Origin: a virus
Virus record (IMG/VR): IMGVR_UViG_3300037264_009886
Location: 1-34,635 of that record
Direction: 5' to 3' (one strand)
Length of the DNA: 34,635 nt
The first letter of the stretch is position 1; every line of letters starts with the position of its first letter. The position numbers and the translations under genes were made by a program. Shown one piece after another: positions 1,605 through 34,635 of this stretch. The notes below the pieces were generated by a model. That model worked only from the letters and a program-made list of their open reading frames with translations. It did not search any database and had not been told where the DNA came from.

Positions 1605-1614
1605 AATAGCGTCG

Positions 1615-1677
1615 GTGGTCCGTTGTCAGTGGTCTGTTGTCAGTGGTCCGTTGTCAGTGGTCAGTGGTCCGTGGTTA
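1615..1677. repeat. Tandem heptamer array, nine units
   Basis: On the plus strand this spacer is nine perfect-register 7-bp units: GTGGTCC, GTTGTCA, GTGGTCT, GTTGTCA, GTGGTCC, GTTGTCA, GTGGTCA, GTGGTCC, GTGGTTA. The last unit supplies the TAA stop codon of the tape-measure gene on the minus strand (1675-1677). The array fills nearly all of the space up to the next start at 1604. Unlike the other three arrays, I see no inverted arm here. Confidence 0.9.
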
Positions 1678-4965: not shown

Positions 4966-5020
4966 TTGACCTCCGTGTTTGTAGACCCGATACTATTTGT
5001 GTACGCAATGAATGTACGCA
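4966..5020 (+). promoter_or_regulatory. Promoter and direct-repeat operator for the toxin-antitoxin pair
   Basis: A sigma-70-like promoter can be read upstream of the antitoxin: TTGACC at 4966-4971 and TACTAT at 4991-4996, with a 19-bp spacer that is longer than ideal. Immediately after it lie two direct repeats GTACGCA at 5001-5007 and 5014-5020, 13 bp apart. Antitoxins of this type normally bind repeats over their own promoter and repress it, so these are the candidate operator. A ribosome-binding site GGAG follows at 5021-5024. Confidence 0.45.
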
Positions 5021-5032
5021 GGAGCGCAACCT

Positions 5033-5275
5033 ATGACCCAAATCAGCGCCCGGGAAGTTCGTCGGCGGCTGGCGGAACTGCTGGATTCGGCCCAGGCCGG
5101 CCAGACCATTGAGATCACCCGCCACGGCAAGGCCGTCGCCCGCATCACCCCGCCGCCCCGGCAGCCCGTTCCGCGCAAGCTGCCGGACATGGCGGGCTTT
5201 CGCCGCAGCCTGAAGATGTCGGGCAAGCCGCTCTCGCGGATCGTCACCGAACAGCGCCGCGGCGCGAGGTACTGA
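5033..5275 (+). CDS. Antitoxin of type II toxin-antitoxin system, Phd/YefM-VapB type
   Basis: This 80-aa protein begins MTQISAREVRRRLAELLDSA and continues AGQTIEITRHGKAVARITPP. That is the standard Phd/YefM fold N-terminus (DNA-binding, self-repressing) followed by the G-K-x-V-A-x-I-x-P motif. The C-terminal ~40 residues are basic and probably wrap the toxin. I chose ATG 5033 over the upstream ATG at 5012 because GGAG at 5021-5024 is well spaced from it and the conserved domain begins exactly there. The stop codon is 3 nt before the toxin start. It is encoded against the direction of the surrounding tail genes, with its own promoter, so it is an inserted cassette. It neutralises the PIN toxin and probably stabilises the prophage. 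Confidence 0.92.
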   Translation: MTQISAREVRRRLAELLDSAQAGQTIEITRHGKAVARITPPPRQPVPRKLPDMAGFRRSLKMSGKPLSRIVTEQRRGARY

Positions 5276-5278
5276 GCT

Positions 5279-5701
5279 ATGGCGCTGATCGACACCAGCG
5301 TGCTGGTGGCATATTTCTGTCCCGAACCGCTTTCCGAGCGGGCCTCGTGCGAGCTGGAGAAGGCCAACCAGCGCATTCTCACCCCCCTGATCGAGGTCGA
5401 ACTGGCTTCCGCCCTGGCGATCAAGACCCGCACCAGGCAAGCCGATCCGGCGTCGGCGCGGGCGGTGATCCGGGAGTTCCGCAAGCAGGTGGACGCGGGC
5501 CTGTTCACGCTGCGCGAGGTGACGGTGGCTGATTACCGGCGGGCGTTTGACTGGCTGGCGGCGTTTGACACGCCGCTGCGCACGGCCGACGCCATCCACC
5601 TGGCCTGCGCGGCGAATCAGAAGCAGCGCCTGGTGACCGCCGACCAGGAACTGGCCCGCGCAGCCCGCAAGCTGGGCGTTGCCTGCACGTTGCTCAAGTA
5701 G
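5279..5701 (+). CDS. PIN-domain ribonuclease toxin (VapC type)
   Basis: This 140-aa protein is a complete PIN domain. The predicted acidic active-site residues are visible: Asp5 in MALIDTSVLV, Glu39/Glu41 in LIEVELASAL, Asp104 in LRTADAIHLA and Asp122 in LVTADQELARAA. In this family these residues bind Mg2+ or Mn2+ and cleave RNA, often tRNA or rRNA. It follows the antitoxin in one operon, the usual antitoxin-first order. The length is normal for VapC, and no active-site residue is missing, so it should be functional. It ends 30 nt from the convergently oriented tail tube gene. The RNA target cannot be told from sequence. Confidence 0.93.
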   Translation: MALIDTSVLVAYFCPEPLSERASCELEKANQRILTPLIEVELASALAIKTRTRQADPASARAVIREFRKQVDAGLFTLREVTVADYRRAFDWLAAFDTPLRTADAIHLACAANQKQRLVTADQELARAARKLGVACTLLK

Positions 5702-9983: not shown

Positions 9984-10231
9984 GACTTTTCTCCCGGGGC
10001 CTTGGCCGGGGCCTGCAGGCGGTGCTGGCCTTCCAGATTGGACAAACGCCGCTCGATGGATTGATACTCCGAGCGCAGGGTGCGGGCCTCGAAGAGCATC
10101 TCATCCAGCCGCTTCTGCATGGTGTCCAGCTTGGTGTTGACCACGCCCCACTGGACTGTAATCGCCAGCAGTGCTGACAAAGCCGTCAGCAGCACCCCCG
10201 CCCAACCGGACCATTCGATTTTGCTTCGCAT
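9980..10231 (-). CDS. Small membrane-anchored coiled-coil protein, holin- or Rz-like
   Basis: This 83-aa protein has one predicted membrane helix at about 9-30 (WAGVLLTALSALLAITVQWG) followed by a coiled coil (about 33-72, TKLDTMQKRLDEMLFEARTL). Its size and topology match small lysis proteins (holin or i-spanin) or a phage membrane accessory. No second helix is present, which argues against classic type I holins. Its Shine-Dalgarno sequence (AAAGGAC) is supplied by the heptamer repeats at 10236. The stop is in an ATGA overlap with the next gene. Confidence 0.72.
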   Translation of the reverse strand: MRSKIEWSGWAGVLLTALSALLAITVQWGVVNTKLDTMQKRLDEMLFEARTLRSEYQSIERRLSNLEGQHRLQAPAKAPGEKS

Positions 10232-10235
10232 GTCC

Positions 10236-10367
10236 GTTGTCCTTTGTCCGTGGTCAGTAGTCCGTGGTCAGTGGTCCGTGGTCCGTGGTCCGTGGTCCGT
10301 GGTCCGTAGTCCGTGGTTCGTTGCCATTGCTCCTCAGCAACGGACCACGGACTACGGACCACTGACT
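10236..10367. repeat. Heptamer array with inverted arm
   Basis: On the plus strand 13 heptamers run in register from 10236: GTTGTCC, TTTGTCC, GTGGTCA, GTAGTCC, GTGGTCA, then five GTGGTCC, GTAGTCC, GTGGTTC, GTTGCC. After a short spacer (10327-10335) the inverted units follow (AACGGAC, CACGGAC, TACGGAC, CACTGAC), so the transcript can form a hairpin with a stem of about 30 bp. The right arm encodes the last codons of the 119-aa gene (V-S-G-P) and its TAG stop. The left arm encodes the Shine-Dalgarno sequence of the 83-aa gene. Confidence 0.9.
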
Positions 10368-15385: not shown

Positions 15386-15625
15386 TCAGAAACGCCTGCG
15401 GACCTGCGCCACCGGGCACAGGTCGAAGTTGGGCTTGCGGGCCTTGTGCCGCTGCTCATCGCGTAACAGCGCCCGCACCGCCGAATCGGGCTTGCGCCCC
15501 TCGGCGTGGGCCAGCCACGCCGCCTGCAGCGCATCGGGGCGCAGCGAAAGCGGGCAGTGGCTCATTGCCGACCGGGTCAGACCCGGCGGCCATTGCGTGG
15601 CGTTGTCGAGCGTGAGCGCTGCCAT
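15386..15625 (-). CDS. Small protein of unknown function, portal region
   Basis: This 79-aa protein begins MAALTLDNATQWPPGLTRSA and carries KPDSAVRALLRDEQRHKARK. I do not recognise a family. It is helical with a basic C-terminus (PVAQVRRRF), consistent with DNA or packaged-DNA contact. The first ATG at 15625 is used; a GTG at 15628 is an alternative. It is the first gene after the low-GC insertion at 15629-16328, so transcription of the downstream portal-tail genes must either cross the terminator at 15750 or begin between the terminator and this gene. Confidence 0.65.
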   Translation of the reverse strand: MAALTLDNATQWPPGLTRSAMSHCPLSLRPDALQAAWLAHAEGRKPDSAVRALLRDEQRHKARKPNFDLCPVAQVRRRF

Positions 15626-15749
15626 CACTCTTCTAGGACAGGAAGTCGAAGCAGAATGGCTGTTTGATATCGGTATGGTGTTAGATCGTTACACCCGTAG
15701 ACCTCCGGCGGTGCCGGCGAGCGGAAAGCGGTCTGTATCAGGGGCCAAA

Positions 15750-15787
15750 ACGAAAATCGCCCCCGTTTGGGGGCGATTCTCTTTCGT
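15750..15787 (-). terminator. Intrinsic terminator of the small hydrophobic ORF
   Basis: On the minus strand a GC-rich stem (AATCGCCCCC at 15778-15769 pairing with GGGGGCGATT at 15764-15755) with a 4-nt loop is followed by TTTCGTTTT. Flanking bases ACGAAA and TTTCGT extend the stem. It begins a few nucleotides after the stop at 15789. The stem is symmetrical, so it may also act on plus-strand transcription. In the late operon it would stop readthrough from the terminase region unless the phage antiterminates or restarts transcription downstream. Confidence 0.85.
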
Positions 15788-15788
15788 C

Positions 15789-15884
15789 TTAGTGCCGTCG
15801 GCTCCAATCAAGGATGAGACTGACGACAGAGCAAATCGCGGCGATGATCTCCACCGCCAAGGTAAGACACTCGAAGTTTGTCAT
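15789..15884 (-). CDS. 31-aa hydrophobic peptide, candidate type I toxin or holin-like toxin
   Basis: This ORF codes for a 31-aa peptide: MTNFECLTLAVEII at the start, then a hydrophobic helix (AAICSVVSLIL) and a charged end DWSRRH. One membrane helix with a polar start and a basic tail is the form of type I toxins and of the short Hol-Tox peptides (M-T/S-x-x-E-x-L-x-L pattern), a match I make by eye only. An AGGTG Shine-Dalgarno lies 8 nt upstream, and a strong terminator follows the stop by 2-3 nt. The Shine-Dalgarno can be sequestered by an upstream inverted repeat. The block is low in GC and interrupts the late operon, which suggests acquisition. A peptide of this length could be chance; the paired SD, sequestration element and terminator are what support it. 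Confidence 0.6.
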   Translation of the reverse strand: MTNFECLTLAVEIIAAICSVVSLILDWSRRH

Positions 15885-15886
15885 GT

Positions 15887-16003
15887 GAAACACCTGACTG
15901 AGACACGAAAGTCGTGTTCCGGAGGTGCTGCGACAAACTAAACGAACGCTGCTTAGGCATGTGAATGAGTGGTAGAGGTGTCCGTTGTAGAGTCAGGTGT
16001 TTC
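15887..16003 (-). promoter_or_regulatory. 5' leader with 13-nt repeat that can hide the ribosome-binding site
   Basis: A perfect 13-bp inverted repeat, GAAACACCTGACT at 15887-15899 and AGTCAGGTGTTTC at 15991-16003, is separated by 91 nt. On the minus-strand RNA the upstream copy is GAAACACCTGACT and the downstream copy is AGTCAGGTGTTTC. The downstream copy contains the AGGTG Shine-Dalgarno and is followed 2 nt later by the ATG of the 31-aa ORF. Pairing of the two arms would block ribosome access. A small hairpin (ACACGA/TCGTGT at 15905-15917) lies in between. The unpaired remainder of the leader is A/C-rich. Confidence 0.65.
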
Positions 16004-16046
16004 TGTGAGTTTGAGTGTGATCGCTGTAGTTTTTGGTCGTTGCTTT

Positions 16047-16270
16047 TCAGTGTCGAGTGCGATGGAAGTCGTGTTGTTCAGTTAGATGTTGTTTGTTGTT
16101 GGTGTTGAGTAGTTGTAGCTGAGTAGTCGCCACAGCGTCCGGCGGTCGCAGACGAATACGATTCCGGAACCACCAATGGGCCATCACCCCACGGGCGACG
16201 TTGCCCATTGGAAGCTGAATGTTATCGCCGGGACATTATGCGATCCAGTATAATCTCGCGTCTCGCCCAT
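16047..16270 (-). other. Low-GC block with a 53-codon ORF and hairpin, unassigned
   Basis: This stretch lies between the terminase-side zinc ribbon gene and the 31-aa ORF. On the minus strand an ORF at 16208-16047 reads MGNVARGVMAHWWFRNRIRL, then becomes rich in T, N, Q and H (TTQLQLLNTNNKQHLTEQHD), because the strand is A/C-rich. No Shine-Dalgarno is visible. A 9-bp inverted repeat CCAATGGGC/GCCCATTGG flanks a 22-nt loop near 16173-16210. A TATAAT at about 16249-16254 is present on the plus strand. It may be an untranslated leader or a structured RNA. I have a vague, unverified impression that similar intergenic blocks recur in planctomycete genomes. The flank 16271-16328 holds nothing I can name. 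Confidence 0.35.
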
Positions 16271-16328
16271 AATCGTCGCTCCATCGCTCGTTGACAGACA
16301 TCGAGAACGATCTTACTGGCAGGGGCGT

Positions 16329-16508
16329 CTACTTCCCAATCTCCTTCTCCCAGGTCGTGATCCGCTTCCCGCAATGCCGGCACTCCCGCCGGCGAATGAT
16401 CTTGGCACCGAACGACGCGCGCGTGTACACCACTTCAAAGTGGCGACAGCCGCACCTGGGGCAAACCAGCCCGCGCGGCAGATCGGTGGCTTTGTCCTTC
16501 GTCTTCAT
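16329..16508 (-). CDS. NrdR-like zinc ribbon protein
   Basis: This 59-aa protein has two Cys pairs, C16/C19 (LVCPRCGC) and C43/C46, with RRRECRHCGKRITTWE between. The second part closely matches the zinc ribbon of the transcription repressor NrdR (R-R-R-E-C-x-x-C-G-x-R-x-T-T), although the ATP-cone domain of NrdR is absent. It is therefore a stand-alone zinc ribbon that probably binds nucleic acid. The start is in an ATGA overlap with the terminase stop, so it is co-translated with the packaging ATPase and may assist terminase. It could also be a regulator. A long frame that contains this sequence extends to 17282 but is a terminase shadow. Confidence 0.8.
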   Translation of the reverse strand: MKTKDKATDLPRGLVCPRCGCRHFEVVYTRASFGAKIIRRRECRHCGKRITTWEKEIGK

Positions 16509-23440: not shown

Positions 23441-23890
23441 TCACGAAGGAAAGACTGATGCCATTGGTGATCGTTCCCACGGGCATCTCCGGCCAGCCAG
23501 CGCCGGGAAGTACCTATTGGCCGGGGGGGTGGTCAGCAGAGAGGCTCTGCCACTTTGGCACCCCGCCCAGTCGAACCGTGGCGCGTCGCGGTGCGGGAGG
23601 GGATCGTTGGCCAACCCGGCGCGAAGAACGCGCCGTGGGCCAAACGGGTGCGAACGGGCGGGAGCGCGGACGGGTTGGGACGGGCTACCGTCGCAGACCG
23701 TCGCGACGGTTCCCATTGCGCGCAAGACATTTCCGCGTGCGCACGCGCCCATGCGCCCGCGTAAGTGGGGGTGATCGCAGCGGTCTGCTACGGTACGCAC
23801 GTAAGTGCTTGTGCCGCCTGGCGTGGCTACCGTCGCAGAGCGGCGGAGCATCGCAACGGTATCGCGGCGGTACGCAGCGGTGGTCTTCAT
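23441..23890 (-). CDS. Doubtful small gene downstream of the primase
   Basis: An open frame starts with an ATGA overlap on the primase stop and an AAGGGGG ribosome-binding site: MKTTAAYRRDTVAMLRRSAT. This coupling supports a gene. The protein (149 aa) is Arg/Ala-rich, with VRTVADRCDHPHLRGRMGAC, and its second half does not look protein-like. The same DNA has short imperfect repeats (CTACCGTCGCAGA at 23687 and 23828) and many CGCA/GTGC patches, so it could be noncoding, for example an origin or spacer. If noncoding, the whole 23418-23886 gap (470 bp) holds nothing else I can name. Confidence 0.3.
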   Translation of the reverse strand: MKTTAAYRRDTVAMLRRSATVATPGGTSTYVRTVADRCDHPHLRGRMGACARGNVLRAMGTVATVCDGSPSQPVRAPARSHPFGPRRVLRAGLANDPLPHRDAPRFDWAGCQSGRASLLTTPPANRYFPALAGRRCPWERSPMASVFPS

Positions 23891-26292
23891 GGCCGTGCCC
23901 CCTTGAGTTCCATGCCCTCGTAGAACGGCACGTCTCCGGCCCCGCGCCGGCGGACCACGCCGGGCACGGCAGCGGCCAGGTCGCGGCCAAAGGTCTGCTT
24001 GTTGGTGATGGCGGTGCGGCCGTCCTGCTCGCACCACTGTTTCCAGGCGTTGTAGAGGTCGTCCACCCAGACCCGATGGCCGGAGGCGACCACGCAGCAG
24101 TCGCGCACGAAGGCCAGGACGGGCGAGGCGAGATCTTCCATCTCGCGCACCGCTTCCGAGACGGCCTTGGGTTGCACGAAATGCCCCCTCTCGCGCAGAC
24201 GTTTGAGGCCCTCAATCGCCCACAGCAGGATGCCCGGCAGTTCCTCCATCAACTTGCCCGTCAGCGCCACGTCCTCCTGGCCGTAGAAACTGTGCATGAG
24301 GCGCAGAATGACGAAGCGGCCGGCGAGCGCACCGCTGGAATCGTTCATGCGGGGAAGTTCATTGGTCAAGAACACGAACCGCGTCGGCAACTTCATGGTC
24401 ACGCTGCCGAGGAACTTCCGGTCCACGGTCAGGGTGTCCTCGCCGGAAATGCACAGCAGGCGTTCCACGACCACGCCGACGTTCTCGCCGGTAAAGCGGG
24501 CGTCGGAGACAATGGCCAGGTTCTTGGCGATCAGGGGCTGGAGGCCGAAGGTGCCCGCCAGACTGGAGGTGGTCGGCCCGACGACGTTGCCTGCGCCGAC
24601 CAGGCGGGTGAGGATGCGCCCGATGGTTCCCTTGCCCGAACGCTTGGGGCCGACGAGCAACAGCATCTTCTGCTGCGAGGTGTCGGCGACCAGGCAGTAG
24701 CCCATCCATTCCTGGAGCAACTCGACGGATTCCAGGTCGTCGCCCCATAACTGCTTGAGGAATTTGAGCCAGCGCTCCGGCCCTTCCGCGTTGGGGTTGT
24801 AGTCGAAATCCAGGGCGTTGATGTTGAACAGCGCTGGAGTCGGGGCCAGCATCTGGCCGCTGGGGATATGCAGGTTGCCAGAGAGGCAGGGCAGCAGTTC
24901 GCGGGGATCGGGCCGGGCTCTGTCGCCCGCAAGCCAGGCCGGGGGCGTTACGCTGGCAGGCAGGTGGACATGGGCGCGGAGCGATTCGACGGCGGCTTTG
25001 ACCGAGCCCGGATTCGACTCGAAGTCCACCAGTTCCAGCGCCCCGGCCTGCTTGTTGAACACGTAGCGCAGCGCCCCATGCAGCCACGGCTGGAGTTTCT
25101 GACGCAGCGTCTCCTCCTCGATTTCCACGAAGCGGTTGCCCCGCCAGGCCAGCAGCGTTCCGGCATAGCTGTAGAGGGTCCGCCCTTCACGATGATGATG
25201 AAACTCGGCGACGAACGCCTCGGCGGTGGGCAGGGTCTTCTTGGGCGAAAGCACCAGCCGCTTGGTCTTGGGGTCGCGCGTGCCCAGGGCAACAAGGCCG
25301 TCATCACCGGGATCAGGATCGTCCGCATCGCCGGCGGCGGGCGCTGCGCGGGGGGCGGGAGCGGTGCGGCGGGGCTGATATTGGCCCGTCACCTGCGCCA
25401 GCGCCTTGTCGATGGTCATCTGCCCGTAGGTCTTGGCCCCGTGCTTTTCATCCCATTTCGGGCGGATGAGACCCGAGGTGCGGAACATGCGGTCGATCTG
25501 CGCGGCGTCCTTGGTGTAGAACGCCAGGGTGAACACGACCGACGAGTCGGCTTCGCTGGCGGAATTGAAGTGGTTGTTCCATTGCCCGGCCCACAGCGCC
25601 GAGAACTTCGCGCCGCTCTTTCGGCTGCGGCGGGCTTTCTCCAGAATCTGCTCGTCGGACAGGCCCGTGTTGGTAGGCGCGACGACGGGCGGAGCGATGG
25701 GAAGTTGAGGCGCTGGCGGCGACCTCGTCGCGCCGAAGACCTCCCCATACAACAGGTCCAGCGCCGCCTGCCGCAATTCGACCTGTGCCGACGCCACGTC
25801 GATCCGCCGACCAGTGACGGTGAAGAACCGCCCCTGGTCGTACATCTCGACTTCGCCGTCCTCGAACCCCTTGCGGCACCGCTCCCCCGGCTTGGACGCT
25901 TCGAGGAAAACCTTAACACCGCTGCCGGACGGACTGATCTCGCAGTAACTGTCGAGGGCCGCGACCACCCGCTGGCCCCACGGTTTCATCTCGCCGGTCG
26001 CCAGGTCAATGCAATCATCCAGATCGACGCCGCAGTAGGGATCGTCGGCGGCAAAGACGAACCCCACCCCCTCGTACTGGTTGTTCCCTTGCCAGGCGGC
26101 GACCGCATCGTCAAACGCGCTCCAGGTGCCGGGATCGGTGGAATCCGCCATCGCCCCCGTCCGGGCGTTGAACGGGCACTTGGTCGGCTTCCCATCACGC
26201 TCGATGTAACGCCAACAAACCCACTGCGGGCGTTGCCGGAGGCAGGCCGGGACGGTTTCCACGAGAGGCTGGACCGGCGGATCGGAAATCAT
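23887..26292 (-). CDS. Primase-helicase, NrS-1/phage D5 type
   Basis: This 801-aa replication protein combines priming and unwinding. N-terminal residues about 20-165 look like a PrimPol domain: WVCWRYIERDGKPTKCPFNA, the acidic GVDLDD (Asp90, Asp92), PSGSGVKVFLEA and FFTVTG. Residues about 210-300 are a spacer. From ~360 a helicase follows: a D5-N-like region and a superfamily 3-type Walker A GPKRSGKGT (548-556), then LIAKNLAIVSDARFTGENVG and VFLTNELPRMND. Such proteins initiate DNA synthesis in NrS-1-like phages and satellites. The gene starts in an ATGA overlap with the 101-aa gene upstream. It is the largest early gene of the element. Confidence 0.93.
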   Translation of the reverse strand: MISDPPVQPLVETVPACLRQRPQWVCWRYIERDGKPTKCPFNARTGAMADSTDPGTWSAFDDAVAAWQGNNQYEGVGFVFAADDPYCGVDLDDCIDLATGEMKPWGQRVVAALDSYCEISPSGSGVKVFLEASKPGERCRKGFEDGEVEMYDQGRFFTVTGRRIDVASAQVELRQAALDLLYGEVFGATRSPPAPQLPIAPPVVAPTNTGLSDEQILEKARRSRKSGAKFSALWAGQWNNHFNSASEADSSVVFTLAFYTKDAAQIDRMFRTSGLIRPKWDEKHGAKTYGQMTIDKALAQVTGQYQPRRTAPAPRAAPAAGDADDPDPGDDGLVALGTRDPKTKRLVLSPKKTLPTAEAFVAEFHHHREGRTLYSYAGTLLAWRGNRFVEIEEETLRQKLQPWLHGALRYVFNKQAGALELVDFESNPGSVKAAVESLRAHVHLPASVTPPAWLAGDRARPDPRELLPCLSGNLHIPSGQMLAPTPALFNINALDFDYNPNAEGPERWLKFLKQLWGDDLESVELLQEWMGYCLVADTSQQKMLLLVGPKRSGKGTIGRILTRLVGAGNVVGPTTSSLAGTFGLQPLIAKNLAIVSDARFTGENVGVVVERLLCISGEDTLTVDRKFLGSVTMKLPTRFVFLTNELPRMNDSSGALAGRFVILRLMHSFYGQEDVALTGKLMEELPGILLWAIEGLKRLRERGHFVQPKAVSEAVREMEDLASPVLAFVRDCCVVASGHRVWVDDLYNAWKQWCEQDGRTAITNKQTFGRDLAAAVPGVVRRRGAGDVPFYEGMELKGARP

Positions 26293-27866: not shown

Positions 27867-29906
27867 CTAAAGATCCCAGTCGATGTCCGAACCCGGATCG
27901 TAAACCGGGCTGTTTCCGCAACGCAGACGCGGCGGCTGGAAATGTGCCGCCAGTTCCTTGTCGTATTCCGCAATCTGCTCGATGGCGCGGTGGATGGCAA
28001 TGCCGACAGCCTTGCGGATGCGGTCGCGGTCGCTATGTTCCTTCTTGGGCCGTCCACCCCAACTGCGATCCTTGAGTTCGTCGGCGAGAATGTTCATCTC
28101 CCCCCGCACCCGGTCCTTGGTCGCCTCGTCATTGTCTTTTTCCGCTCGGCCCATCTCCTCCTGGAGTTCTTGGTAGTGGGCGCGATACGCCGCCTGCGCT
28201 TCCTTGGTGGATCGCTCGCCGGCGTCGCCAAGGATGAACTGCTGGGGAACGCGGGCAACCTGAAACGCCATGTTGACGGCCGACAGAAGTTGGCGCGGGC
28301 TCGACAACAGGAGGTGGAGGTAGGCCGCACCCTTGCTGGGCAGAAGGATGAAATCCTGCTTGCCTTTGTGCCGCACGACCCAGGCCTGGCCCTTCTTGCG
28401 GAACACAAAATCCTTCAGCGCCAGTTGCGGCTCCTGCGGCGTGGCCGGCGCAGCCGTCGGCGAGACCATCGACATCGGGATCGCCGTGTCGCAGGCCAGA
28501 CGCAGCAAACAACTATCGGGCAGTTCCCGATTGCGGATCGCGCTCGCATGCCCCGCGATGGCATCGTCCACGACCTTCACGACCTGCTTGCTGTGACGCT
28601 GGTACATCTCATACATCTGCAGCGCCGCCATGTCTGGAGTTCCAGGCAGGTGGTTGACCACGCGACCGACCTCGCCGTAGCGCCCGAAGAAGTCCGTCGC
28701 CGACAGCTTCGTCACTTCGGACGCCGTCTCGACATAAGCGGCAAGCATCGTGCGAGGCTCTCCCTCGGAGCGAGGATCGAGCAGCAAATCCACCTCATAG
28801 GCTTCGCCGGGATCGAGCGCTTCGGCACCCGCACCAAGCACCGCAAACCTCCGGTCGATGCATTGTGAACACGTCCCGCAGTGCGTCTTGAGCTTTGTCC
28901 GCCCCCACGTATGGGTGCAACTGGTCGCGTACTTGATCATCTCGCCGCAGCCGGAGTCGACGATGTGCTTGACCACCTCAGATTTCGTCTTCCAGATATA
29001 CGGGTTGTCGACTTTGAAATCGCGCTCGGCGACCAGGGAGAGGATGCGTGCGAACCCCTTGATGACCCGCGGGTGGGTCGTCCGCGTCGCCTTCGCCCCG
29101 ACAACCTGCGGTGACAGCGGCAGGTTCAGGCTGACGACGCCGTTCTCGTAGAAGCGGATACGCGACAGGTCGTATGCCTGCGCGATCGTCGCAGCGATGC
29201 TCGCGTATAGAAACGATCTGCTGCGCTGGGTGTACTCCCCTCCCAGCCCCTTCTCTTTATTGATGTGGACGGGGACATGCAGCGGCTGGGGAGCGCCAAC
29301 CTCCGTGGCCTTCGCCGCCAGCAACTCCTGCAAGCGACGGTAGCGCCGGGAGAGTTTCTCGGTCGGGCGGTGATTGACCAGCGCGATGCCGCGCTTGTCA
29401 CGCACGACTTCTTGCACAGCGCCGCCGAGCGAATCCAGCCCGCCGGAGAACAGCATCACCTCCTGGATGGCCTGCGTTTTGCCGGTCTTCGAGAACGGCA
29501 AGTAGTGTTGGATCGGCCGGGGATGCGTGAGATCGATGAAGTCGAAGTGGTATTCATCCTCGGAGAGGAAACTCAGCGTCTCAACCAGCGCCGTCATCAC
29601 GTCCGGTTTGCGCCAGAACTTGGGGTTACGCACCGGGATCGTGAACAGCAGACGGCGACGCCAATCCGCGCCCACGTTCTCGACGCCGTTGCCGCCGCGC
29701 TTCACCGCCTGGTCCGCCACGTAGACGTAGGTCGCGATCTCGATCAGGTCGGCGAAGACCGTCGGAATGTTGGCGGAGACGGGCCGGGAAAGGTCATCGC
29801 CCTTGAGGTGGACCTCGTCGTCCAGACGGAGTTGCAGCGACTTGGCCGATTGCCCATTGCCGCTGGCCGGCGCGTTGCCGCACAGGATGGCACGTTCATT
29901 TGGCAT
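27867..29906 (-). CDS. QueC-like PP-loop protein fused to a C-terminal signalling-ATPase domain
   Basis: This 679-aa protein has a beta-rich N-terminus (about 24-140, with RRRLLFTIPVRNPKFW), then an ATP-pyrophosphatase core with the PP-loop LFSGGLDS at 152-159. A QueC-type zinc site follows: C330, C343, C346 and C349 in THCGTCSQCIDRR. QueC makes 7-cyano-7-deazaguanine; relatives are used in type IV CBASS and Qat defence. Residues about 498-675 match, by eye, the C-terminal domain of large signalling ATPases (FRKKGQAWVV, GDAGERSTKEAQAAYRAHYQ, ELQEEMGRAEKDND, RKAVGIAIHRAIEQIAEYDK, ending in a Y-D-P motif). The fusion is unusual. Start 29906 overlaps the partner gene by 11 nt. Confidence 0.85.
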   Translation of the reverse strand: MPNERAILCGNAPASGNGQSAKSLQLRLDDEVHLKGDDLSRPVSANIPTVFADLIEIATYVYVADQAVKRGGNGVENVGADWRRRLLFTIPVRNPKFWRKPDVMTALVETLSFLSEDEYHFDFIDLTHPRPIQHYLPFSKTGKTQAIQEVMLFSGGLDSLGGAVQEVVRDKRGIALVNHRPTEKLSRRYRRLQELLAAKATEVGAPQPLHVPVHINKEKGLGGEYTQRSRSFLYASIAATIAQAYDLSRIRFYENGVVSLNLPLSPQVVGAKATRTTHPRVIKGFARILSLVAERDFKVDNPYIWKTKSEVVKHIVDSGCGEMIKYATSCTHTWGRTKLKTHCGTCSQCIDRRFAVLGAGAEALDPGEAYEVDLLLDPRSEGEPRTMLAAYVETASEVTKLSATDFFGRYGEVGRVVNHLPGTPDMAALQMYEMYQRHSKQVVKVVDDAIAGHASAIRNRELPDSCLLRLACDTAIPMSMVSPTAAPATPQEPQLALKDFVFRKKGQAWVVRHKGKQDFILLPSKGAAYLHLLLSSPRQLLSAVNMAFQVARVPQQFILGDAGERSTKEAQAAYRAHYQELQEEMGRAEKDNDEATKDRVRGEMNILADELKDRSWGGRPKKEHSDRDRIRKAVGIAIHRAIEQIAEYDKELAAHFQPPRLRCGNSPVYDPGSDIDWDL

Positions 29907-30690
29907 CGGGACGTGCCCCCGCTTTCAACTCGTCCACCAACTTGCGCATCGCCACATGCGCAAAGCCGCGCGCGTCGTCGCGCGAGATGCCGCCCTTCTC
30001 GAAGTTGGTCTTCGACAACCAGCCCCCGGAGAAATCCTCGACGATCTTCGACGCCTCTCGGCAATGCACCTCCAGAGCGTTACTGAATGCCGCCTGCTGC
30101 GCCAGCGTGGCAAAACGCTTGCCTTCGCCGAGGTGGTATGTCACGGCCCGGCTGAGGAAATAGTCGAGACACCGGTTGGTGATGCGCGAGAAGAACTGCC
30201 GCGAGAACTCGCTGAATTGCTTGTTGGTCGCCAGCCCCGCCAACGCCTTCTGGACATCCTGCGGCTGGGTTCCGAAGAGACTCTGCGTGCGCGTGCCCAG
30301 CACCTTGGCGATGGTCTCGGACGCGGCCATCTGCGCCATCTCGCCCAGGTCCGTGCGCCCGCTATTGTTCGAGACGCGCGCGTCGATGGCGTCGGAGAAG
30401 GCCCCGACCACCTCCATCACGCCGGGTTCATCGGAAACCTGGATACCGGCCTGCCGCAGCGCGCCGACAAACCCCTTGAGGTCTTTCGCGCGGGCTGCCA
30501 GCGGTAGTTGGGTCAGAAGCCAGACGGTCTCGACAAGGGCCTTGTCCTCGGCGGCAAGGTTGAGGCCGCGCTCAGCGGCGGCCATCGTCGCGCTGGCGAC
30601 TTGCGCGGTGCCGGCCCCGCAAGCGAGGAGGCCGACCACCTCGCCCCATCTTCTCGTTCTCGGAAGATCGCCAAGCCTTGTATGGCCCAT
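29896..30690 (-). CDS. Unknown protein paired with the QueC-like gene
   Basis: This 264-aa protein starts MGHTRLGDLPRTRRWGEVVG and is helical: GTAQVASATMAAAERGLNLA, ALVETVWLLTQLPLAARAKD and SRQFFSRITNRCLDYFLSRA. No known domain, membrane segment or catalytic motif is visible. It is the upstream partner of the QueC-like gene, overlapping by 11 nt, which argues that the two act in one complex. It is not recognisable as QatB. By analogy with Qat and type IV CBASS, where PP-loop enzymes modify a partner, this protein could be the substrate or effector. That is inference. The SD upstream (GGAACCC) is weak. Confidence 0.8.
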   Translation of the reverse strand: MGHTRLGDLPRTRRWGEVVGLLACGAGTAQVASATMAAAERGLNLAAEDKALVETVWLLTQLPLAARAKDLKGFVGALRQAGIQVSDEPGVMEVVGAFSDAIDARVSNNSGRTDLGEMAQMAASETIAKVLGTRTQSLFGTQPQDVQKALAGLATNKQFSEFSRQFFSRITNRCLDYFLSRAVTYHLGEGKRFATLAQQAAFSNALEVHCREASKIVEDFSGGWLSKTNFEKGGISRDDARGFAHVAMRKLVDELKAGARPDAK

Positions 30691-33804: not shown

Positions 33805-34635
33805 ATGGCGGTTGGCGCTCGCTTTGTCGGCACCCTCGGCAGTCGTAGCCCTAAGTTCTACCTGTTGTGCTACCTTGCGGTGGTCTTCATCTTTGCGTTG
33901 TGCTTCTGGCTTATTCGTGATCAGTTCTATCACCCTTATGCTCGCTACGAGGGTGCTATGTATGCGGAGGAGCAGAATTTGCGTGTCAGCCTTACTTCGG
34001 CCCTCCGAGACGCGGCACAAGGGCGACCCCTGCAAATTGAGGGCACCTCAATCGTTGCTGATTCTATCCGCGTCGGGAAGATCGATGCGGAAGAGGACCA
34101 TCTGGTGATTCACGTCGGAATGACGTTTATGGCGGGTCCACCTGATTGGCACTGTGAACTTTACACCCACACTGTCATGAAGTTGCCGCCAGTGGCCGTC
34201 AAAGAGCAACGCCCGGATGGGTCGCAGGCACTGATGATATTCCCCCAACTTCCCGACCCCTTGGTTACACTATTCATTCCCAAATCTGCGGGCGACGTAG
34301 GCGCGAGTCCAACTCAGGTATCGATATTGCCCGTCTTCATGCGAATCTATGTGTCCGAGGGTGACCTGGAAAGGCTTCGCGGGTATACCGCAGGTAGGGC
34401 CGGCTTTCCTTCCCGAGTTCCGAATTCCTTCGGACGCCTCCTGTATCTGAGCGTAGTCACGATCACGACGCTCGGTTACGGGGACGTCGTCCCGTTGAGT
34501 GACCTAGCTCGTGGACTCTGCGGCTTGGAGGCGACGATAGGCATCATCCTCCTTGGGCTCTTCATCAGCATCTTGACGACAAGGAAGGCTGGTCATCAGG
34601 GACCTTCATCCTCTCCATCGGAGGTTCAGCCGTGA
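33805..34635 (+). CDS. Two-helix potassium-channel-like protein with large periplasmic domain
   Basis: This 276-aa membrane protein begins MAVGARFVGTLGSRSPKFYL. The first membrane helix is at about 18-37. A ~175-residue extracytoplasmic domain follows (about 38-205). Then comes a pore loop with the filter TLGYGD (about 222-227, in SVVTITTLGYGDVVP), a conservative variant of the K+ filter TVGYGD, and a second helix at about 238-257. The core therefore is an Ion_trans_2-type channel. The usual ligand-binding RCK domain is missing; the large external domain is unusual. Its base composition is lower in GC than the phage genes, so it is probably host chromosome. SD GAAAGGAG precedes ATG 33805, and a stop falls on the last bases of the window. 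Confidence 0.88.
   Translation: MAVGARFVGTLGSRSPKFYLLCYLAVVFIFALCFWLIRDQFYHPYARYEGAMYAEEQNLRVSLTSALRDAAQGRPLQIEGTSIVADSIRVGKIDAEEDHLVIHVGMTFMAGPPDWHCELYTHTVMKLPPVAVKEQRPDGSQALMIFPQLPDPLVTLFIPKSAGDVGASPTQVSILPVFMRIYVSEGDLERLRGYTAGRAGFPSRVPNSFGRLLYLSVVTITTLGYGDVVPLSDLARGLCGLEATIGIILLGLFISILTTRKAGHQGPSSSPSEVQP

What the first reader, a model, noticed from the sequence alone, without database searches (positions are those of the whole stretch)
15750..16003. Hidden 31-aa hydrophobic peptide with sequestered ribosome site and own terminator
Seen: ORF 15884-15789 with one hydrophobic helix and basic end; AGGTG SD; a perfect 13-nt inverted repeat whose downstream copy contains the SD and whose upstream copy lies 91 nt earlier in the leader; a strong terminator 2-3 nt after the stop. 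Known: type I toxins are short membrane peptides with leader-controlled translation. Inference: a compact toxin (or holin-like) unit inserted as a moron between terminase and portal genes.
Basis: seen in the sequence. Interest (0 to 1): 0.75.

Follow-up and report, generated by a model that had tools for sequence, protein, structure and literature searches.

The report
Gated small membrane-peptide cassette in prophage
A prophage of planctomycete bacteria carries, in a slot where its relatives store toxin and anti-virus genes, an extra 600-base cassette that appears to make a 31-residue membrane peptide whose ribosome site is locked by RNA folding; it resembles known bacterial 'type I' toxins, but no relative or antitoxin was found, so the toxin reading is a plausible guess.

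Summary
The 31-aa ORF (15884-15789, -), the AGGTG ribosome site, the perfect 13-nt inverted repeat and the hairpin terminator are all present. Their combination is unlikely by chance: 1% of shuffled inserts give such an ORF and 0 of 400 give the repeat.

The 'moron' reading is well supported. A close relative (L005) lacks about 600 bp here and has the empty site. The slot, between an NrdR-like zinc-ribbon gene and the head operon, is a cargo hot spot in this Phycisphaerae prophage family. 58 of 181 slots are enlarged, with AbiEi/AbiEii, DarT-NADAR, IetAS, IrrE, REase-ARP or sigma-factor genes.

New here: a 171-nt leader (16130-15960) that is 76% A+C and almost unstructured. No other such window occurs in 2.3 Mb of related loci. 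With the sequestered ribosome site about 100 nt downstream, this resembles the E. coli tisB standby layout. The same leader also fits a Rho-utilization (rut) site.

The 'toxin' claim is unproven. The peptide has no homologue in any collection searched, no antisense RNA or promoter is recognisable, and no conservation test is possible. Best reading: an orphan, translationally gated membrane-peptide cassette that works like a type I toxin mRNA (0.40). Membership in type I TA is not established.

The parts
15707..16328 (-). insert (cargo cassette, about 600 bp net) between the zinc-ribbon gene and the head-operon motif
   Evidence: absent in L005, where the zinc-ribbon stop is followed after 22 nt by TCTACCGGTGTAACGATC; no homologous DNA in 238 related loci
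16173..16211 (-). hairpin CCAATGGGC...GCCCATTGG near the 5' side of the insert
   Evidence: sequence; window 16120-16239 folds with z = -2.6 on the - strand and -0.9 on the + strand
15960..16130 (-). 171-nt A/C-rich, G-poor, almost unstructured leader (A 69, C 61, G 16, T 25)
   Evidence: E = -6.3 kcal/mol; no comparable window among 91,065; strongest C>G bubble in the window
15991..16003 (-). upstream arm of the 13-nt inverted repeat (anti-SD arm)
15887..15899 (-). downstream arm, contains the Shine-Dalgarno sequence
15891..15895 (-). AGGTG Shine-Dalgarno, 6 nt from ATG
15789..15884 (-). 31-aa peptide ORF: one hydrophobic helix, C-terminal W-S-R-R-H
   Evidence: Kyte-Doolittle 2.64 over 17 aa; helix 3-30, pLDDT 96
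15745..15781 (-). intrinsic-terminator-like hairpin with TTTTCGTTTT tail
16329..16508 (-). upstream flank: 59-aa NrdR-type zinc-ribbon protein gene
   Evidence: PF22811 E = 4e-11
15683..15702 (-). downstream flank: conserved motif GTCTACGGGTGTAACGATCT before the head operon
   Evidence: matches in 81 of 181 slots
15386..15628 (-). downstream flank: first small head-operon gene (about 80 aa), followed by the portal gene
   Evidence: conserved in relatives; portal PF05136

Best explanation
A self-contained cargo cassette sits in the terminase/head slot of a Phycisphaerae prophage and is read on the - strand together with the late genes. Its transcript has a 5' hairpin, then a long single-stranded A/C-rich stretch, then a 13-bp long-range helix that hides the ribosome site of a 31-residue single-helix membrane peptide, then a terminator. 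Most likely it works like the tisB kind of type I toxin mRNA. Ribosomes cannot reach the hidden site directly. They load on the unstructured leader (standby) or wait until the helix is opened by cleavage or remodelling, and then make a peptide that inserts in the inner membrane and depolarises it or stops growth. Shown here: the insertion, the slot's cargo nature, the sequence parts, and the predicted folding. Inferred: transcription, translation, standby loading, membrane insertion and toxicity. Any antitoxin RNA is hypothetical.
For: Empty site in L005. Slot enlarged in 58 of 181 loci, including AbiEi/AbiEii, DarT with NADAR, IetAS, IrrE, REase-ARP and sigma-factor cargo. Only small ORF of 270 in the window with SD and membrane segment; 1% of shuffles. 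GC by codon position 47/41/69%, the pattern expected of coding DNA in a G+C-rich genome. Single helix 3-30. SD sequestered in all modelled transcripts. A/C-rich unstructured leader unmatched in 2.3 Mb of relatives. Published tisB layout: a single-stranded region about 100 nt upstream of a sequestered RBS plus a 5' structure (PMC7708055). Positive C-terminal residues are common in type I toxins (PMC8309996).
Against: No homologue of peptide or cassette anywhere searched, so no conservation or covariation test. No sigma-70-like promoter on either strand and no complementary RNA elsewhere in the window. Leader folding is only modestly better than shuffles (z about -1.7; 4.3% of shuffled leaders hide the SD as well). 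The leader also fits a rut site.
Confidence: 0.4

Rival explanations
1. Transcriptional insulator. The A/C-rich, G-poor leader is a Rho-utilization (rut) site which, with the downstream hairpin terminator, stops read-through from the terminase/zinc-ribbon operon before the separately controlled head operon. The ORF is incidental or only couples ribosomes to Rho.
For: Strongest C>G bubble of either strand of the window (C/G 4.67, 16160-15915) with regularly spaced C. Rho prefers unstructured, C-rich, G-poor RNA of at least 70-80 nt (PMC6407284; PMC9160355). It lies just after an operon end and before a conserved head-operon motif.
Against: Relatives without cargo lack any such segment, so the phage does not need it. 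It does not explain a membrane ORF with a good SD or the SD-covering repeat. Rut-like scores are not specific (1284 merged regions with C/G above 2 in 2.3 Mb).
Confidence: 0.2
2. A regulated small membrane peptide that is not a toxin of the type I kind: for example a superinfection-exclusion, lysis-timing or membrane-modulating peptide of the prophage.
For: Same anatomy; prophage cargo slots carry host-interaction genes (precedent PMC9122126).
Against: No homologue or partner gene; holins usually have more than one membrane segment and lie with endolysin genes (general knowledge), and no lysis gene was recognised next to this ORF.
Confidence: 0.2
3. Chance ORF in non-coding or decaying foreign DNA; the repeat and hairpins are remnants.
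For: No homologue; the sequence combination is rare but not impossible; other small ORFs overlap on both strands.
Against: ORF, SD, membrane segment, SD-covering 13-nt repeat and terminator occur together in order within 260 nt (about 1% for the ORF and below 0.25% for the repeat in shuffles). Third-position G+C is raised.
Confidence: 0.17
4. The inverted repeat is a duplicated ribosome site serving two divergent small hydrophobic ORFs: 15884-15789 (-) and a GTG ORF 16005-16085 (+, VSLSVIAVVFGRCFSVSSAMEVVLFS), not an RNA switch.
For: On the + strand the other arm reads the same AGTCAGGTGTTTC with AGGTG 5 nt before GTG.
Against: The + strand is G/T-rich, so hydrophobic codons are expected by composition; GTG start; no + strand terminator downstream; + strand folding z near 0.
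Confidence: 0.03

Closest known systems
tisB/istR-1 type I toxin-antitoxin (E. coli)
   Same: 29-31-aa single-helix peptide; sequestered ribosome site; unstructured stretch about 100 nt upstream; 5' structural element (PMC7708055)
   Different: no recognisable antisense RNA or promoter; no sequence similarity; leader A/C-rich; phage cargo in Planctomycetota; standby not tested
Ldr/Fst, AapA and ZorO-type type I toxins
   Same: size, one hydrophobic helix, positively charged C-terminus (PMC8309996)
   Different: no Pfam/NCBIfam/PDB sequence match; known type I TA phyla are Proteobacteria, Firmicutes, Tenericutes, and one cyanobacterial case (PMC12390103)
Rho-dependent terminators / rut sites
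   Same: long C>G unstructured bubble downstream of an operon
   Different: followed by an SD-preceded ORF and an intrinsic terminator; Rho action untested
Prophage defence hot spots of P2-like phages and P4-like satellites
   Same: variable cargo slot in a conserved phage gene order, with toxin-antitoxin and anti-phage genes (PMC9122126)
   Different: here the slot is between an NrdR-like zinc-ribbon gene and the head operon in Phycisphaerae prophages; the window's cargo is very small and unrecognised

Membership tests
Type I toxin-antitoxin system | small (<60 aa) hydrophobic peptide, usually one membrane helix | tested here: met
   31 aa, KD 2.64, helix 3-30
Type I toxin-antitoxin system | RNA antitoxin that base-pairs with the toxin mRNA | tested here: inconclusive
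   no consensus promoter on either strand, no other complementary stretch in the window above chance; RNA not measurable here
Type I toxin-antitoxin system | expression of the peptide inhibits growth | not testable with these tools
   needs experiment
Type I toxin-antitoxin system | homology to a known toxin family | tested here: not met
   no hit in Pfam, NCBIfam, PHROGs, PDB, PADLOC, phages, plasmids; families are poorly connected, so this is weak evidence
tisB-like ribosome standby | ribosome site sequestered in stable structure | tested here: met
   SD unpaired probability 0.0006, prediction only
tisB-like ribosome standby | single-stranded region about 100 nt upstream | tested here: met
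   15960-16130 folds at -6.3 kcal/mol
tisB-like ribosome standby | 30S/S1 binding to that region drives translation | not testable with these tools
   needs toeprinting or mutants
Rho-dependent terminator | at least 78-nt C>G region with regularly spaced C | tested here: met
   C/G 4.67, best of window
Rho-dependent terminator | Rho-dependent 3' ends downstream | not testable with these tools
   needs RNA 3'-end data
Phage moron / accessory cargo | absent from close relatives at the same site, own terminator | tested here: met
   empty site in L005; terminator
Phage moron / accessory cargo | own promoter | tested here: inconclusive
   no sigma-70-like site found; other promoter types not covered

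The most novel reading that the evidence does not exclude
A previously unseen type I-like toxin cassette of Planctomycetota prophages: a membrane peptide gated by a composition-extreme A/C-rich standby leader and a long-range anti-SD helix, stored in a newly recognised defence/toxin cargo slot between the terminase and head operons.
Probability: 0.25. Interest if true: 0.7.

Novelty: new variant of a known kind. Interest (0 to 1): 0.46.

Why it matters
Type I toxin-antitoxin systems were reported only from Proteobacteria, Firmicutes and Tenericutes until a single cyanobacterial case (PMC12390103). A working example from a planctomycete prophage would widen their range and show that standby-style gating evolved outside enterobacteria. 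Independently of that, the comparison exposes a cargo hot spot in Phycisphaerae prophages that collects toxin-antitoxin and anti-phage systems and could be mined for new ones.

Tried and rejected
Rfam at gathering threshold and up to E = 10: nothing convincing. DNA similarity of the insert to phages and plasmids: none. Peptide tblastn to phages and plasmids: none. Collection-wide exact patterns (inverted repeat with variable gap, back-translated peptide core, repeat plus flank): none. Peptide in 397 genomes of the host class and 392 of the phylum: only chance hits inside larger reading frames. A 32-bp DNA match lies at the start of an unrelated gene and carries an indel, so it was rejected as chance. 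Search for the same leader or small membrane ORFs in 181 slots: no equivalent; L219 and L221 have short hydrophobic ORFs before the portal, not followed up. Idea that the whole insert is one large structured RNA: z = -2.9 for 15845-16328 but -1.4 for 15780-16328 and no Rfam match, so not pursued. Overlapping ORFs on both strands: no Pfam match. Terminal inverted repeats or target duplications of a transposon at the insert ends: none seen.

Full report
Observation. The ORF 15884-15789 (-) encodes MTNFECLTLAVEIIAAICSVVSLILDWSRRH. AGGTG lies 6 nt before ATG. A perfect 13-nt inverted repeat has its downstream arm over the SD and its upstream arm 91 nt before it. A hairpin with a T-rich tail follows the stop by about 4-7 nt, slightly farther than stated. 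Against shuffles, such an ORF with SD and membrane segment arises in 1% of inserts and the repeat in none of 400; it is the only such ORF of 270 in the window. AlphaFold gives one helix, residues 3-30.

Setting. The window is an IMG/VR virus record of 34,635 bases with a gpA-type terminase, lambda-type portal and serine recombinase. Its nearest named relatives are Phycisphaerae (Planctomycetota) genomes. In relative L005 (88% terminase identity) the zinc-ribbon gene is followed after 22 nt by TCTACCGGTGTAACGATC and the small head-operon gene. The window has 622 bp (16328-15707) in that place, so about 600 bp is inserted. No DNA or peptide relative of the insert exists in 238 related loci.

The slot is a cargo site. 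In 181 loci with both flanks, 123 have the short form (zinc ribbon to portal up to 820 bp) and 58, the window included, are enlarged, 1.0-4.9 kb. Cargo includes AbiEi with AbiEii, DarT with its NADAR partner, IetA with IetS, an IrrE-type protease, REase-ARP, DUF488 genes and sigma factors. In many enlarged slots, as in the window, the cargo ends just upstream of a conserved motif near TTCTACCGGTGGAACGATCT, found in 81 of 181 slots. Comparable hot spots are known in P2-like phages and P4-like satellites (PMC9122126).

The leader. Upstream of the ORF lies a 171-nt tract (16130-15960, - strand) with 69 A, 61 C, 16 G and 25 T that folds at only -6.3 kcal/mol. Among 91,065 windows of 150 nt in 2.3 Mb of related loci none is as skewed. 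The 13-bp helix forms in all modelled transcripts that contain both arms, and the SD remains paired in others when the upstream arm is removed. SD accessibility is 0.0006, against a median of 0.36 for long-ORF starts in this phage, but 4.3% of shuffled leaders do as well and the leader's folding z-score is only about -1.7. The RNA evidence is suggestive, not strong.

Mechanism. The arrangement of 5' hairpin, single-stranded tract, sequestered RBS about 100 nt downstream and a roughly 30-aa membrane peptide matches the described layout of tisB, where ribosomes load at a distant standby site (PMC7708055). I therefore take a standby- or remodelling-gated membrane peptide as most likely (0.40). 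The same tract is also the best rut-like C>G bubble of the window (criteria in PMC6407284, and PMC9160355), so a Rho-dependent insulator is a serious rival (0.20). A non-toxic membrane peptide (0.20) and a chance ORF (0.17) remain open.

Membership. The peptide's size and helix meet the type I toxin description. The antisense RNA and growth inhibition are untested, and homology to known families was tested and not found. It should be described as working like a type I toxin mRNA, not filed as a member. Negative searches are of limited weight because a 31-residue query is insensitive and the host phylum is thinly sampled.

Verdict. Real, unusual, orphan cassette in a newly noticed prophage cargo slot. 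The toxin claim is plausible and directly testable.

Noticed in passing
slot 16328-15707 and equivalents in L006, L019, L046, L086, L089, L174, L187, L226 and others: The site between the NrdR-like zinc-ribbon gene and the head operon is a cargo hot spot of Phycisphaerae prophages, filled with AbiE, DarT-NADAR, IetAS, IrrE, REase-ARP, DUF488 and sigma-factor genes (58 of 181 slots enlarged). Many cargo ORFs have no known family.
   Followed up: partly
window 15702-15683; L005:7497-7515; 81 of 181 slots: Conserved motif near TTCTACCGGTGGAACGATCT at the downstream edge of the slot, next to a 59-aa NrdR-type zinc-ribbon gene: a candidate late operator or promoter element for that protein.
   Followed up: partly
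window 5012-5701 (+): Phd/YefM antitoxin and PIN-domain toxin pair on the strand opposite to the late genes.
   Followed up: no
window 27867-30690 (-): QatC-like (QueC-domain) 679-aa protein with a 264-aa neighbour, possibly a partial or variant Qat-type defence module near the recombinase.
   Followed up: no
window 1611-1675, 10231-10366, 737-783: Heptanucleotide tandem repeats (GTCCGTG / GTCAGTG) at separate places, partly palindromic.
   Followed up: no
window 23887-26292 (-): Large replication protein with NrS-1 polymerase helical-bundle and D5-type helicase domains (primase-polymerase-like).
   Followed up: no
window 33805-34635 (+): Ion-channel-domain protein at the contig end, possibly host flank or cargo.
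   Followed up: no
L002 and L006 (one 102-kb contig), L202/L223/L225/L229/L231 (one genome), L188/L193/L205/L209: Several Phycisphaerae genomes and one viral contig hold two to five copies of this terminase region: heavy polylysogeny.
   Followed up: no
window 16005-16085 (+): A GTG ORF of 26 hydrophobic residues preceded by the other arm of the inverted repeat, which reads the same AGTCAGGTGTTTC ribosome site on the + strand.
   Followed up: partly
L219 and L221, just before the portal gene (slot offsets about 1.0 kb and 3.8 kb): Short hydrophobic ORFs (MDVFQLLLLGGGTFWAFLYAVLQLLLPFLPDVIG and a relative) with SD just before the portal gene in two other prophages.
   Followed up: no
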